From Gemmatimonadota bacterium (lineage in GTDB: Bacteria > Gemmatimonadota > Gemmatimonadetes > Gemmatimonadales > Gemmatimonadaceae), in contig JAHFCU010000032.1 of assembly GCA_023249305.1 (NCBI GenBank), positions 1-32,379 on the forward strand: 32,379 nt of DNA. The letters are read 5' to 3'. The translations under genes were made by a program, and so were the position numbers. Shown in pieces: positions 29,249 to 32,379 of this stretch. Under the pieces are notes generated by a model that did not search any database, had not been told where the DNA came from, and saw only the letters and a program-made list of their open reading frames with translations. Numbering within the stretch: the first letter of the stretch is position 1; each line of letters begins with the position of its first letter.

Positions 29249-29345
29249 GCTTCAGGCCCCGGTGGGCGCGGGCCCGCCAACTCCGCCAGGGCCGAAAGGC
29301 AGCAACGGTACGTGGTGTCTCACGTCGCATCGTCAGGCCTGAAGC
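29249..29345 (+). ncRNA. ffs: 4.5S RNA (signal recognition particle RNA, small bacterial type)
   Basis: About 97 bases forming one long hairpin. The ends GCTTCAGGCC (29249-29258) and GGCCTGAAGC (29336-29345) pair perfectly over 10 bp. The apical domain IV is seen in GCCAGGGCCGAAAGGCAGCAACGG (split across 29285-29308): the CAGG and AGCA sides form the conserved symmetric and asymmetric loops bound by the Ffh M domain, and the tip is CC-GAAA-GG. Most bacteria have GGAA at the tip, so GAAA is a variant of the same GNRA-like class. The length and missing Alu domain identify the short form. A promoter with proper spacing precedes it and a strong GC-rich hairpin follows. dnaX, often next to ffs, begins about 2.5 kb downstream. 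Confidence 0.9.
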
Positions 29346-29350
29346 ACTCT

Positions 29351-29428: not shown

Positions 29429-30268
29429 CTACGTCTTGTTCGCCGTCCAGGCCTGCACCGCCGCAAATGCCTCCTGAAGTGCCCGCCGGTCACGCCGCGC
29501 GACCGCCCCGCGCAGTGCGCCGAGCTGGGCCAGGCATGTCTCGAGCGCGTCGAGCAACGGAACGGCGTTTTCCATGAAGATCGGTCCCCACATCGCCGGC
29601 GACGAGGCGGCCATGCGTGTCATGTCACGGCCGCCGCCGCCCAGCCGGCTGCGCGCAATCGCGCGCGACGACAGCGTGCCGGCGAACGCGAGCGAGAGGA
29701 TCTGGGGGAGATGACTGCTGAAGGCCATCTCGGCGTCGTGCATGGCGGCGTCACGCTCCGTCGGCGTGGCGCCGACGGATCGCCAGAGCGCTCGGGCGCG
29801 CTTCCACGCGGCGCTGCCGGTGTCGGCGGTTCGACAGAGGTCCACACGAGCGTCCGCGAAAAGACCCCTCCGCGACGCCGGCCAACCGGCGCGATGGTCG
29901 CCGGCAATGGGATGACTTCCGACGAACGTCGCCGACAGTCCCAACGCGGCCGCGCTCTGCATGATACGCCGCTTGGTGCTGCCGACGTCGGTGATGAGCG
30001 CCGCATGCTGTACGCGCGCGCACGCCTGTTCCAGCAGAACGGGCGCGATGTCCACCGGAACAGCGAGCACCACAGTTTCCGCGTCACTCAGCGCGCGCAG
30101 GTTGGCATCAATCACGCGATCGATTACGCCCGCGCGCCGCGCGTGCCGAGTCGCCGCCTTATCGGCATCGAACCCCCAGACGGTCGCGCCGAGCGCCGAC
30201 AGGTCGTGCGCCAGCGAGCCGCCGATGAGACCGAGGCCGAGGATGGCGACCGGTCCAGTGGCCGTCAC
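29429..30268 (-). CDS. tyrA: Prephenate dehydrogenase
   Basis: A 279-residue NAD(P)-dependent enzyme turning prephenate into 4-hydroxyphenylpyruvate for tyrosine. The N-terminal Rossmann motif VAILGLGLIGGSLAHDL is followed by VVLAVPVDI, ITDVGSTKR, FVGSHPIAGDHRAG (the HPxxG active-site block) and AFSSHLPQILSLAFA, all typical of prephenate dehydrogenase. There is no C-terminal ACT domain, so feedback by tyrosine probably acts elsewhere. The start is GTG at 30268, which overlaps the chorismate mutase stop as GTGA (30265-30268); the longer open frame to 30616 lies inside the upstream genes. It is the last gene of the aroF - chorismate mutase - tyrA operon. Confidence 0.92.
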   Translation of the reverse strand: MTATGPVAILGLGLIGGSLAHDLSALGATVWGFDADKAATRHARRAGVIDRVIDANLRALSDAETVVLAVPVDIAPVLLEQACARVQHAALITDVGSTKRRIMQSAAALGLSATFVGSHPIAGDHRAGWPASRRGLFADARVDLCRTADTGSAAWKRARALWRSVGATPTERDAAMHDAEMAFSSHLPQILSLAFAGTLSSRAIARSRLGGGGRDMTRMAASSPAMWGPIFMENAVPLLDALETCLAQLGALRGAVARRDRRALQEAFAAVQAWTANKT

Positions 30269-30558
30269 GTTCCGTCGTCCTGCTGTGCGCGCCGGCACAT
30301 CGCCACCACGGGCCAGAAGATGTCGCGCACCGATTCCTCGGGCAGGCCCGCCTGCCGTGCGTGACGAGCGACCGACGCGACGACTTGCGCCTCGCGCCGC
30401 GGGTCGAGCACGGCAAGGCCGGCGCGCCGCTTTTCTGCTCCTATGCGCCGCGCGATGTCCATGCGGCGCGTGAGCAGCTCGATCAGTGCCGCGTCGAGCG
30501 CGCTCATCTCGTCGCGCAGCGCGGCCAGCGCCAGCGAAGACTTGGCCGACGGCGTCAT
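30265..30558 (-). CDS. Chorismate mutase, AroQ class
   Basis: A 97-residue all-helical protein converting chorismate to prephenate. It shows LRDEMSALDAALIELLTRRM with the conserved arginine and glutamate/aspartate of the first long helix, RRIGAEKRR with the substrate-binding lysine, VLDPRREAQV and a last helix near IFWPVVAMCR. The size is that of a free-standing AroQ domain. ATG at 30558 overlaps the DAHP synthase stop as TGATG; a GTG one codon earlier (30561) overlaps as GTGA and is equally possible. Being between DAHP synthase and prephenate dehydrogenase, it makes the operon specific for the prephenate branch leading to tyrosine (and phenylalanine). Confidence 0.9.
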   Translation of the reverse strand: MTPSAKSSLALAALRDEMSALDAALIELLTRRMDIARRIGAEKRRAGLAVLDPRREAQVVASVARHARQAGLPEESVRDIFWPVVAMCRRAQQDDGT

Positions 30559-31610
30559 CACGCCACCCGCGTCGTTCGATTCGCCGGGACGAGGGTGCGC
30601 CCCGCGGCCTCGGCAAAACCCGCGAGCGAACGCATCAGCGCACCGAACGCATCGAGAGTCAGCGATTGGTCGCCGTCGGAGAGCGCTTCGCCCGGTCGCG
30701 GATGCACCTCGATGATGAGGCCGTCAGCGCCGGCGGCAATGGCGGCGAACGCCAACGGAGCAACGAGGTCGGCGCGACCGCCGGCGTGCGAGGGATCAAC
30801 GATGACGGGGAGGTGTGTCTCGCGCTTCAGCACTGGAATGGCGGCGACATCCAGCGTATTTCGGGTCGCGGTTTCATAGGTGCGAATGCCGCGTTCGCAG
30901 AGGACCACGAGCTCGTTGCCGCGCGCCATGATGTGCTCGGCGGCGAGGAGCAGTTCGGTGATGGTCGCGGACAGGCCGCGCTTAAGGAGGATCGGACGCC
31001 GCACGCGTCCCACTTCGGCGAGCAGCGGATAGTTCTGCATGTTGCGCGCGCCGATCTGCAGCATGTCGGCATGCTCCGCGACAAGGTCCACGTGGCGCGG
31101 GTCCATTACCTCGGTCACGACTGGCAGTCCAGTAGCGGCCCGCGCGTCGGCGAGGAGCGCGAGTCCCTGCACGCCAAGTCCCTGGAAGGCCCACGGCGAG
31201 GTGCGCGGCTTGAAGGCGCCGCCCCGCAGCATCGCCGCGCCGTGTTCGCGCACCCCGTGCGCCGTCTCCAGCAGCATCGCCGCGTTCTCCACCGAGCACG
31301 GCCCCGCGGCGACCACGATGCGCTGCTCGCCCAGCGTGGTGCCTGCGGCGTCACCCAGCGGAACGAGCGTCGGTGCGGCGCGGAATTCTCGCGAAGCGAG
31401 CCGGTACGGAGTGCGCACCGGCACGACCGAGGCCACGCCCGGCCAGCGGCTCACGGCCCCGGCGTCGAGTTGCGACGTGTCGCCGATGCAGCCGACGACC
31501 ACGCGGTCGGTACCCCGCGAGACATGCGTGCGCACGCCGCGCTCCTCGAGGTGCTCGCGCAGCGCGTCGAGAATAGACTGGGGAATGCCAGCTTCGGTGA
31601 TGACGATCAC
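30558..31610 (-). CDS. aroF: 3-deoxy-7-phosphoheptulonate (DAHP) synthase, type I-beta with ferredoxin-like N-domain
   Basis: A 350-residue enzyme condensing phosphoenolpyruvate and erythrose-4-phosphate, the entry step of aromatic synthesis. The N-terminal about 70 residues ([21 protein letters not shown]) form the ferredoxin-like domain used for tyrosine or phenylalanine feedback in Thermotoga-type enzymes. The barrel shows [68 protein letters not shown] and VDPSHAGGR, carrying the PEP, sugar-phosphate and metal ligands. The ATG at 31610 lies just past a terminator-like hairpin and a Tyr/Phe-rich leader ORF. The enzyme is therefore probably controlled both allosterically and by attenuation. 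Confidence 0.95.
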
Positions 31611-31619
31611 AGCCGCTCC

Positions 31620-31660
31620 GGGAAGAAAAGAAAAAGGCCCGTGGTAAGCTCCACGGGCCT
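31620..31660 (-). terminator. Attenuator terminator in the aroF leader
   Basis: On the minus strand AGGCCCGTGG (31660-31651), loop AGCTTA, CCACGGGCCT (31644-31635), then TTTTTCTTTTCTTCC. This is a perfect 10-bp GC-rich stem followed by a T-tract, ending about 10 bases before the aroF ATG and about 24 bases after the leader ORF stop. It is an intrinsic terminator placed inside the 5' leader of an operon, the hallmark of attenuation. Confidence 0.88.
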
Positions 31661-31719
31661 GGTCTGCGATGGGTTGGTGTCAGCTATGCGCGAACGCCTG
31701 CCCCCGCGGCCCGTGTGAG
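31649..31719 (-). promoter_or_regulatory. Predicted antiterminator pairing of the aroF leader
   Basis: Minus-strand CTCACACGGGCC (31719-31708, leader codons 15-18) can pair with GGCCCGTGGAG (31659-31649), the 5' arm of the terminator and two following bases: 11 pairs with one bulged A. Forming this stem precludes the terminator. The upstream segment starts 6 bases after the Phe12 codon, so a ribosome waiting on Tyr7 or Tyr9 should leave it free, while one reaching the stop would cover or pass it. A six-base CCCGCG/CGCGGG pairing within the leader may act as the protector stem. Confidence 0.7.
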
Positions 31720-31761
31720 GCTGCGAAAGTAGGAATACGAGTACGCGCGGGCGCTGAACAT
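31684..31761 (-). CDS. Tyr/Phe-rich leader peptide of the aroF-tyrA operon
   Basis: A 25-residue peptide starting at ATG 31761: it begins MFSARAYSYSYFRS and ends GVRA before TAG (31684-31686). Tyr occurs at codons 7, 9 and 11 and Phe at 2 and 12, so five of the first 12 codons are the two end products of the pathway below. It stands directly before an intrinsic terminator and the DAHP synthase gene. This is the arrangement of the pheA-type leader: lack of charged tRNA-Tyr or tRNA-Phe would stall the ribosome and allow read-through. No Shine-Dalgarno site precedes the ATG; a promoter places transcription start at or next to it, so it is probably translated from a leaderless mRNA. Short length alone would be weak evidence, but composition, terminator and alternative pairing agree. 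Confidence 0.8.
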   Translation of the reverse strand: MFSARAYSYSYFRSLTRAAGAGVRA

Positions 31762-31767
31762 GCGAGG

Positions 31768-31797
31768 AGAGTACACGCGGCCCGCGCGGTTCGTCAA
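31768..31797 (-). promoter_or_regulatory. Promoter of the aroF leader
   Basis: On the minus strand TTGACG (31797-31792, five of six bases of the -35 consensus) and TACTCT (31773-31768) are 18 bases apart. Only 6 bases separate the -10 from the leader ATG, which predicts transcription starting at the ATG itself. Confidence 0.65.
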
Positions 31798-31837
31798 GTG
31801 GGGACGCGCCCCACACCGCCACGGCGAACGTTGTCAA

Positions 31838-31865
31838 CCGTCTACCGTCTGCCGTCTACCGTCTG
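31838..31865 (+). repeat. Four tandem CCGTCTR heptamers upstream of dnaX
   Basis: CCGTCTA, CCGTCTG, CCGTCTA, CCGTCTG follow without spacers, ending 12 bases before the dnaX ATG. Two copies occur in the opposite orientation at 852-865. The alternation of A and G gives a 14-base period. Confidence 0.75.
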
Positions 31866-31877
31866 CAGTATTATCCC

Positions 31878-32379
31878 ATGACCCTCGCCCTCGCCCGCAA
31901 GTACCGCCCGAAGTCGTTTGCGGCGGTTGCCGTGCAGTCGCACGTGGCGGGAACGCTTAAGGGCGCGATTGCCCGCGGCCGCGTGGCGCACGGCTACCTG
32001 CTGTGCGGTCCGCGCGGCACGGGCAAGACGACCTTGGCGCGCGTGCTTGCCATGGCGCTCAACTGCGAGCGGAAGCGGGACGATGGCGAGCCGTGCGGCG
32101 AGTGTCCGAGCTGCCTGCGCATCTGGAGCGGCGGCGCCTCGCTCGACGTCGTGGAGATTGACGCCGCGTCGAACCGCGGTGTGGACGACGCCCGCGACCT
32201 GCGCGAGCGCGCTCAGTATGCCCCCACAGGTGACGACCGCTACAAGGTCTACATCGTGGACGAAGCGCACATGCTCACGCGCGAGGCGTGGAACGCGCTG
32301 CTGAAGGTGCTCGAGGAGCCGCCGCCGCGTGTCGTCTTCGTCTTCGCGACCACCGAACCCCAGAAGATCGCACAGGCCG
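31878..32379 (+). CDS. dnaX: DNA polymerase III subunit gamma/tau, 5' part
   Basis: The first 167 codons of the clamp-loader ATPase; the rest lies beyond the window. It begins MTLALARKYRPKSFAAV, the standard DnaX start, followed by the Walker A loop GPRGTGKTT, the zinc-binding cysteines (one in ALNCE, then CGECPSC), IDAASNRGVDD, the Walker B VYIVDEAHML and NALLKVLEEPPPRVVFVFATTEP, which continues toward sensor 1. The ATG at 31878 has no Shine-Dalgarno site; TATTAT (31869-31874) lies 3 bases before it. The gene is transcribed divergently from the aroF leader, and a tandem heptamer repeat fills the space just upstream. Confidence 0.96.
   Translation, partial: MTLALARKYRPKSFAAVAVQSHVAGTLKGAIARGRVAHGYLLCGPRGTGKTTLARVLAMALNCERKRDDGEPCGECPSCLRIWSGGASLDVVEIDAASNRGVDDARDLRERAQYAPTGDDRYKVYIVDEAHMLTREAWNALLKVLEEPPPRVVFVFATTEPQKIAQA

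What the first reader, a model, noticed from the sequence alone, without database searches (positions are those of the whole stretch)
31620..31797. Complete Tyr/Phe attenuator in front of a DAHP synthase - chorismate mutase - prephenate dehydrogenase operon
Seen directly: a 25-codon ORF with Tyr at 7, 9, 11 and Phe at 2, 12; a perfect 10-bp hairpin with T-tract between it and aroF; and a leader segment (31708-31719) able to pair for 11 bp with the terminator's 5' arm (31649-31659). Known: ribosome-mediated attenuation (E. coli pheA, trp, his leaders) uses exactly these parts. Inference: starvation for Tyr/Phe stalls the ribosome and opens the operon. I know of no description of such a leader in this lineage.
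Basis: partly seen in the sequence, partly recalled or inferred. Interest (0 to 1): 0.85.

Follow-up and report, generated by a model that had tools for sequence, protein, structure and literature searches.

The report
Tyr/Phe attenuator of the aroF operon
A short RNA leader in front of genes for making aromatic amino acids carries a tyrosine/phenylalanine-rich mini-gene and a switchable stop hairpin that very probably turn the operon on when those amino acids run short, and similar leaders with histidine, threonine or asparagine codons stand before the fitting genes in related bacteria.

Summary
On the minus strand: a 25-codon ORF (Tyr 7, 9, 11; Phe 2, 12), a 10-bp terminator with T-tract, and a copy of the terminator's 3' arm inside the ORF, before DAHP synthase - chorismate mutase - prephenate dehydrogenase. 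The "11 bp" antiterminator is 8 contiguous pairs plus 3 beyond a bulge. Of 69 orthologous upstream regions tested, 62 show leader plus terminator (0 of 69 reverse complements; 2 of 345 shuffles). Both alternative stems covary, the antiterminator less strongly. The antiterminator arm begins a median 13 nt after the first base of the last regulatory codon, about the edge of a ribosome stalled there. A promoter-like element would start transcription at or beside the ATG (leaderless). Covariance models found similar leaders before hisG, hisC (His codons), pheA (Phe), phenylalanine hydroxylase, prephenate dehydrogenase (Tyr), thrA (Thr) and asnB (Asn): codons fit the gene in 70 of 74 assigned loci (permuted mean 27, maximum 44). 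Best reading: classical ribosome-mediated attenuation, one case of a multi-specificity attenuator set in Gemmatimonadota. Closest known: aroR-aroF of Corynebacterium glutamicum. No RNA or reporter data.

The parts
31768..31797 (-). promoter-like element: -35 TTGACG (31797-31792), 18-nt spacer, -10 TACTCT (31773-31768); -10 ends 6 nt before the leader ATG, so transcription probably starts at or next to the ATG
   Evidence: similar layout in relatives (92 of 100 leaders score at least 9.5, 4 of 100 after shuffling). The stricter generic scan reports no promoter here
31684..31761 (-). leader ORF, 25 codons, MFSARAYSYSYFRSLTRAAGAGVRA
   Evidence: leader plus terminator in 62 of 69 orthologous upstream regions
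31726..31743 (-). regulatory codons Tyr7 (31743-31741), Tyr9 (31737-31735), Tyr11 (31731-31729), Phe12 (31728-31726)
   Evidence: R2 begins 13 nt after the first base of Phe12
31708..31715 (-). R2, antiterminator 5' arm CACGGGCC inside the leader ORF; copy of part of the terminator 3' arm
31651..31660 (-). R3, terminator 5' arm AGGCCCGTGG, can pair with R2 or R4
31635..31644 (-). R4, terminator 3' arm CCACGGGCCT
31625..31634 (-). T-rich tract TTTTCTTTTC of the intrinsic terminator
31616..31619 (-). GGAG, Shine-Dalgarno-like site of aroF
30558..31610 (-). aroF: 3-deoxy-7-phosphoheptulonate (DAHP) synthase with N-terminal FXD domain (the label type I-beta is recalled)
   Evidence: Pfam PF00793, PF18152; NCBIfam PRK08673.1, 460.7 bits against cut-off 335
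30265..30561 (-). chorismate mutase type II, 98 aa
   Evidence: PF01817, 76.1 bits
29429..30274 (-). prephenate dehydrogenase
   Evidence: PF02153 and PF20463

Best explanation
It is a ribosome-mediated transcription attenuator that senses charged tRNA-Tyr (and probably tRNA-Phe) for the aroF - chorismate mutase - prephenate dehydrogenase operon. RNA polymerase starts at or beside the leader ATG and a ribosome loads on the start codon without a Shine-Dalgarno site. With enough Tyr/Phe the ribosome runs through the Tyr/Phe codons and over R2; R3 then pairs with R4 and transcription ends at the T-tract. When Tyr (or Phe) tRNA is short, the ribosome stalls on these codons with its leading edge just before R2; R2 pairs with R3 before R4 is made, the terminator cannot form and the operon is transcribed. 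Shown: sequence parts, conservation, covariation, codon-gene match, spacing, position of the promoter-like element. Inferred: the start site, translation of the leader, stalling, termination and the response to starvation. It appears to be one case of a set of attenuators in Gemmatimonadota that carry His, Phe, Tyr, Thr or Asn codons to fit the downstream gene.
For: Parts in the window. Conservation: 62 of 69 upstream regions against 0 of 69 reverse complements and 2 of 345 shuffles. Terminator covariation: 94.6% of cells paired and 9 of 11 pairs with changes on both sides, neither reached in 500 shuffles. Antiterminator covariation on the same 59 sequences: 89.6% paired, 30 cells changed on both sides against 9.4 in shuffles, sliding the partner by one column drops pairing to about 43%; similar with mixed classes. 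R2:R3 duplex stronger than with synonymous recoding in 56 of 62 leaders and than the mean with other leaders' arms in 49 of 62. Spacing: R2 starts a median 13 nt after the first base of the last regulatory codon (98 of 100 leaders measured; 32 at exactly 13). Folding with a ribosome masked at the last regulatory codon gives at least 5 R2:R3 pairs in 51 of 61 leaders; masked up to the stop codon R3:R4 forms in 61 of 61, which is nearly forced. Loci taken from model hits, not picked by codon content: codons fit the downstream gene in 70 of 74 assigned loci, permuted mean 27, maximum 44 in 20,000. Downstream genes: NCBIfam/Pfam for representatives, tblastn for the rest.
Against: No RNA-seq, ribosome profiling or reporter data. 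Of 69 upstream regions, 4 (L037, L039, L076, L077) show no leader directly upstream; L035, L038 and L058 fail my test but are hit by the model. Antiterminator covariation is weaker than the terminator's: the number of pairs with two-sided change is reached by 87 of 500 shuffles and the number of pair types by 172 of 500, the outermost pair fails in 24 of 59 sequences, and leaders with a GACCCGTG arm have an A-C mismatch. Spacing is shorter in the His leaders (median 8 nt, 10 leaders) and in the one Thr leader (8). A 1:2 hairpin that hides R2 has covariation only in a 17-sequence subgroup (where the number of pair types does not exceed shuffles); RNAalifold finds no ORF stem over all 59 and almost none in a 27-sequence class; R2 is mostly paired within the ORF in only 22 of 61 truncated free RNAs; but ORF folds are stronger than synonymous recodings in 50 of 62. 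Free RNA ending at R3 forms R2:R3 in 28 of 61, so untranslated leaders may read through. In C. glutamicum the analogous leader answers to Phe, not Tyr (passages of PMC11802643). The generic promoter scan finds none.
Confidence: 0.93

Rival explanations
1. A nascent-peptide arrest leader (as in TnaC or Erm leaders, recalled): the peptide itself senses free Tyr/Phe or another small molecule in the ribosome tunnel and stalls there.
For: A short translated ORF before a terminator would look alike; part of the peptide after the run (TGR, RMGPG, TRAAG) is kept in groups.
Against: The run changes with the gene (His, Phe, Tyr, Thr, Asn) and the kept peptide part lies where the codons spell R2, whose bases covary with R3; peptides otherwise diverge.
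Confidence: 0.03
2. A plain promoter-proximal terminator or 3' end of a small RNA, with the ORF kept as a small protein or present by chance; no amino-acid control.
For: Terminator-like hairpins occur by chance at a mean of 0.9 in shuffles of this 1.9-kb region.
Against: Codon content matches the downstream pathway in 70 of 74 assigned loci, R2 can replace R4 in pairing with R3, and controls give 0 of 69 and 2 of 345.
Confidence: 0.02
3. The leader acts at the level of translation or through Rho, with the hairpin not working as an intrinsic terminator.
For: In Actinobacteria a leuA leader with a Leu codon run has a stem that takes in the leuA Shine-Dalgarno box (LEU element, passages of PMC1262725); T-tracts in some relatives are interrupted (for example GGTCGTTT).
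Against: The window's stem is followed at once by TTTTCTTTTC and ends 24 nt before the aroF start, leaving its GGAG outside the stem. T-rich tails are no independent evidence in the relatives, because my test required them.
Confidence: 0.02

Closest known systems
aroR leader of aroF in Corynebacterium glutamicum (Neshat et al. 2014, not read; seen through passages of PMC11802643 and PMC4046766)
   Same: Leader peptide with Phe-Tyr-Phe before a DAHP synthase operon; attenuation by ribosome stalling
   Different: Another phylum; short F-Y-F run; reported to answer to Phe limitation and not to Tyr. I did not compare the RNAs directly
E. coli pheL-pheA, trpL and his leaders (recalled)
   Same: Regulatory codons, alternative terminator and antiterminator, T-tract
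   Different: Those leaders have Shine-Dalgarno sites (recalled); here R2 lies inside the ORF, ending a median 22 nt before the stop codon, and the start is probably leaderless
Sinorhizobium meliloti trpL attenuator (passages of PMC7298713)
   Same: Leader RNA begins with the ATG of the leader ORF (leaderless)
   Different: Trp codons, Alphaproteobacteria, 14-aa peptide
C. glutamicum ilvBNC leader (Morbach 2000, seen only as a title in the reference list of PMC4046766)
   Same: Leader peptide formed without a ribosome binding site, by its title
   Different: Valine-containing peptide, other operon, other phylum
Rfam Trp_leader RF00513
   Same: Weak similarity, 19.7 bits, E 0.1 over 31732-31629
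   Different: Far below its gathering score of 41; no Rfam 15 family passes at this site or in the 20 related loci given

Membership tests
ribosome-mediated transcription attenuator (trp/his/phe type) | short ORF with a run of codons for the operon's product | tested here: met
   codon-gene match 70 of 74 assigned model hits
ribosome-mediated transcription attenuator (trp/his/phe type) | intrinsic terminator between ORF and first gene | tested here: met
   sequence and covariation only:
ribosome-mediated transcription attenuator (trp/his/phe type) | mutually exclusive antiterminator using the terminator 5' arm | tested here: met
   weaker than the terminator and with mismatches in some genera
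ribosome-mediated transcription attenuator (trp/his/phe type) | protecting 1:2 hairpin over the regulatory codons | tested here: inconclusive
   covariation only in a 17-sequence subgroup; stronger folds than synonymous recoding in 50 of 62; no consensus stem over all 59
ribosome-mediated transcription attenuator (trp/his/phe type) | stalled ribosome leaves the antiterminator arm free | tested here: met
   (spacing and folding only; spacing shorter in His and Thr leaders)
ribosome-mediated transcription attenuator (trp/his/phe type) | termination falls when the amino acid is scarce | not testable with these tools
   needs RNA or reporter data
leaderless leader-peptide attenuators (S. meliloti trpL type) | transcription starts at the leader ATG, no Shine-Dalgarno site | tested here: inconclusive
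   best -10 ends 6-9 nt before the start codon in 85 of 100 leaders; SD-like motif in 6 of 100; 5' ends not measured
Rfam leader families (Trp_leader and others) | score at or above the gathering threshold | tested here: not met

The most novel reading that the evidence does not exclude
Gemmatimonadota carry one family of mostly leaderless attenuators built on a shared RNA chassis (start codon at or beside +1, swappable run of regulatory codons, an in-ORF antiterminator arm roughly 8-15 nt further on that copies the terminator 3' arm, and a terminator that is usually GGCCCGT...ACGGGCC). By changing mainly the codon run it has been fitted to Tyr/Phe (aroF), Tyr (phenylalanine hydroxylase, prephenate dehydrogenase), Phe (pheA), His (hisG, hisC), Thr (thrA) and Asn (asnB), so that codon specificity evolves apart from the RNA switch. 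Control of phenylalanine hydroxylase by Tyr codons and of asparagine synthetase by Asn codons would be targets for attenuation that I found nowhere described.
Probability: 0.5. Interest if true: 0.75.

Novelty: new variant of a known kind. Interest (0 to 1): 0.62.

Why it matters
My searches of the open PMC library for Gemmatimonadetes or Gemmatimon* with leader peptide or attenuator listed no paper on such leaders; a 2010 survey wrote that leader-peptide systems had been shown only in Proteobacteria and Actinobacteria, before adding Firmicutes itself (passages of PMC2965389). A large natural set in which the RNA switch stays and the codon run changes would show directly how attenuator specificity evolves, and would tell how these little-studied bacteria control amino-acid synthesis.

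Tried and rejected
Considered and rejected: T-box or riboswitch (no Rfam family at threshold; best weak match Trp_leader; codon content follows the gene); arrest peptide; chance ORF (controls). A stem inside the ORF common to all leaders: RNAalifold gave none over all 59 and almost none in a 27-sequence class, so I claim a 1:2 hairpin only for a subgroup. Pairs spanning the aromatic codons were hardly more numerous than after synonymous recoding (9.1 against 8.5). The model in other phyla: of 80 DAHP synthase loci from the genome collection, 8 have titles of Gemmatimonadota or one of its groups; R1 hits close upstream of the gene at E below 1e-4 in 6 of these 8 (not L184, L209). Among the other 72 the best are L222 (E 6.5e-6) and L242 (5e-4), both more than 500 nt upstream, and a partial match at L187 (0.049). 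The window genome has no HisG match and one model hit below E 0.001.

Selection and rows dropped: the 70 upstream regions are 65 of the 66 best hits (G002 skipped, at a contig start) plus five N-terminally shorter matches; L074 was too short, leaving 69. L046, L059 (near-identical) and L072 (doubtful start) were left out of alignment A1 (59 of 62). One leader fell out of the folding test (61 of 62) and 2 of 100 out of the spacing count. The promoter and spacing counts cover the 62 family leaders and 38 of the first 40 fetched hits, not the 40 fetched later. The 80 fetched model hits were picked by me from the listings: 20 mostly secondary hits in the family, 20 high-scoring hits outside it, and 40; six without an assigned gene (L156, L160, L305, L325, L326, L328) were left out of the codon test. 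Its five candidate amino acids were fixed after I had seen leaders. The four mismatches among 74 are L153, L154 (pheA, at least 3 Phe but Thr scored higher), L315 (hisG) and L316 (thrA). The 62 family leaders were selected by at least 3 Y/F/W and a T-rich tail, so these features are not independent evidence in them; R1 was trained on them and R2 on the classes already seen.

Full report
What is there. The minus strand of the window carries, 5' to 3', a promoter-like TTGACG-18-TACTCT, an ATG six bases after the -10 element, a 25-codon ORF MFSARAYSYSYFRSLTRAAGAGVRA, a 10-bp hairpin with a T-rich tail, a GGAG site and a GTG-started DAHP synthase. The following genes are a type II chorismate mutase and a prephenate dehydrogenase, so the operon makes DAHP and turns chorismate towards tyrosine. 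The divergent gene at 31878 looks like dnaX (clamp-loader type, Pfam DNA_pol3_delta2).

Origin. The best named relatives of its DAHP synthase have titles of Gemmatimonadaceae and Gemmatimonadetes, and the leader peptide of the record titled Gemmatimonadaceae SJ733 (L182) equals that of family member G026 (L031). I therefore take the window to be Gemmatimonadota, probably Gemmatimonadaceae.

Is it conserved? The DAHP synthase protein matched 177 of 179 genomes of the family. I took upstream DNA for 70 hits: 65 of the 66 best (the close ortholog group, not the paralogs at about 50% identity) and five N-terminally shorter matches; one was too short. A leader of 15-45 codons with at least three Tyr/Phe/Trp ending near a terminator was present in 62 of 69; in 0 of 69 reverse complements and 2 of 345 shuffled sequences. 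Four lack it directly upstream, and three have a broken hairpin or fewer aromatic codons but are recognised by the covariance model. Peptides diverge strongly, for example MNVGAATYFYYYYRTPVTGRGGRG and MTRHFSACRFYYVPTRMGPGMSGTRS.

Alternative stems. On 59 aligned leaders (A1) the terminator pairs in 94.6% of cells with two-sided changes at 9 of 11 positions. The antiterminator R2:R3 pairs in 89.6% with 30 two-sided changes against 9.4 in shuffles, and pairing collapses to about 43% when the partner is slid by one column. Clear cases: the leaders of G018 and G015 (one genus) have a GGCTCCCGGA arm and the ORF spells CCGGGAGCC; G073 has GGCCCGCGG with CCGCGGGCC. The R2:R3 duplex is stronger than after synonymous recoding in 56 of 62 leaders. 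Weak points: leaders with GACCCGTG keep an A-C mismatch, and the count of pairs with two-sided change in R2:R3 is matched by 87 of 500 shuffles. A hairpin within the ORF that could hide R2 has covariation in a 17-sequence subgroup but no consensus over the whole set, and R2 is mostly paired inside the ORF in 22 of 61 truncated free RNAs.

Spacing. R2 begins a median 13 nt after the first base of the last regulatory codon (98 leaders; 32 at exactly 13), and exactly 13 nt after Phe12 in the window. From recalled toeprint distances (about 15-16 nt from the P-site codon) this is about the first free base ahead of a ribosome with that codon in its A site. By class the medians are 13 (aroF), 14 (phenylalanine hydroxylase), 15 (pheA), but 8 for the ten hisG leaders and the one thrA leader, where a stall at an earlier codon of the run would be needed. 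Folding with the upstream part masked gives the antiterminator in 51 of 61 leaders; masking up to the stop codon gives the terminator in 61 of 61. The second result is nearly forced, since R2 is masked.

Start of the leader. In 100 leaders the best -35/-10 pair ends 6-9 nt before the start codon in 85, 92 score above a level reached by 4 of 100 shuffled sequences, and 6 have an SD-like motif, against 29 of 62 near the aroF start (aroF starts were taken from the protein match, not verified). Leaderless translation of the leader is therefore likely, as reported possible for S. meliloti trpL, whose RNA starts with the ATG (passages of PMC7298713). The generic scanner finds no promoter here; the -10 element TACTCT fails its 4-of-6 rule.

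A wider set. A covariance model of the aroF leaders (R1) hits 151 of 179 family genomes at E 0.01 or better and 173 of 298 drawn across the phylum, family members included; weak hits among these may be chance. A mixed model (R2) hits all 40 chosen genomes outside the family, every one of which R1 had already hit. I fetched 80 hits. 74 could be assigned to a gene: DAHP synthase 18, phenylalanine hydroxylase 16, hisG 23, hisC 1, pheA 9, thrA 4, asnB 2, prephenate dehydrogenase 1 (by tblastn to references, with NCBIfam or Pfam for representatives; the prephenate dehydrogenase of L299 starts 359 nt downstream). With start codons chosen by position alone, the most enriched of five amino acids fits the gene in 70 of 74; permuting labels gives a mean of 27 and never more than 44 in 20,000. 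Leaders read, for example, MTILRAHHRSHHHHGFTGRGGARARG (hisG), MPLRSSHFCFIFFFATHSTGRDWRHARD (pheA), MSSLSARANYSYRYYYATRSPGRRSERLRV (phenylalanine hydroxylase), MSMHALRAGTTYTTTTTRVTTTTGRRRSRVR (thrA), and an Asn-rich pair before asnB.

How shared is the design? The ten hisG leaders of the first set have CCCGTC in R3 with GACGGG in R4 where most others have CCCGTG and CACGGG; the matching G in R2 is present in 5 of these 10 (L130, L131, L136, L139, L140) and absent in the rest. The two asnB leaders have quite different arms (GGCTCCTCGG) and no TTGAC-type promoter at the usual place in the DNA printed. So the chassis is shared in outline and often in letters, but common descent of all classes is not shown.

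How it works, and how sure. The anatomy predicts classical attenuation: plenty of Tyr/Phe ends transcription, scarcity opens the operon. The features that sequence can test are met except the general 1:2 hairpin; translation, stalling and termination themselves are inferred. Whether Tyr, Phe or both are sensed is open: the window has three Tyr and one Phe in the run, but the C. glutamicum analogue answers to Phe only (passages of PMC11802643).

What is known. The kind is known since trp, his and phe of enteric bacteria (recalled), and aroF attenuation from C. glutamicum aroR. Rfam 15 has no family reaching threshold at this site or in 20 of the related loci; Trp_leader scores 19.7 of 41 bits. 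Searches with Gemmatimon* (0, 2 and 8 papers), phenylalanine hydroxylase (12 of 86 papers listed) and asparagine synthetase (10 of 18 listed) with leader or attenuation terms showed no paper on such leaders in the listings; I read passages of five papers only. Most subscription papers are not in that library, among them, as far as I recall, Vitreschak et al. 2004 on proteobacterial attenuators. I rate it a new variant: the mechanism is standard; the reuse of one design with several codon types, the arm inside the ORF and two targets appear new.

Noticed in passing
L126, L127, L128, L130, L131, L133, L136, L137, L139, L140, L297, L304, L311 and others: His-rich leaders of similar design before hisG, and before hisC in L311.
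   Followed up: yes
L300, L318: Asn-rich leaders before asparagine synthase B in two families of the phylum; arms differ from the usual ones. No paper on such control in the listing (10 of 18 shown).
   Followed up: partly
L121-L125, L129, L132, L134, L135, L144, L150, L152, L157, L159, L302, L308: Tyr-rich leaders before phenylalanine 4-monooxygenase, the enzyme that makes Tyr from Phe.
   Followed up: yes
L155, L296, L327: Thr-rich leaders before aspartate kinase/homoserine dehydrogenase.
   Followed up: partly
L187, L201, L210, L212, L252, L255, L261: Other phyla (Geobacter relatives, Calditrichota, Acidobacteriota and others) also have Phe/Tyr/Trp-rich short ORFs plus a terminator before DAHP synthase, of other sequence types; 15 of 78 loci passed a loose test run without a shuffled control.
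   Followed up: no
L325: A Cys- and Met-rich leader (CYCC, MMM) before a RimK-like ATP-grasp gene, unexplained.
   Followed up: no
L160: A Tyr-containing leader (RYRYYAG) before an ORF that reads like chorismate mutase; not tested against a family library.
   Followed up: no
window 31830-31895: Short GACGGTAGACGG-type repeats lie around the start of dnaX, upstream of the leader promoter; similar short matches occur at 23 other places in the genome.
   Followed up: no
window 29251-29346: Bacterial small SRP RNA on the plus strand, facing the end of the prephenate dehydrogenase gene.
   Followed up: no
G000 and genus members: 6 of 11 genus genomes, the window's included, have no HisG match, suggesting patchy histidine synthesis or incomplete assemblies.
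   Followed up: no
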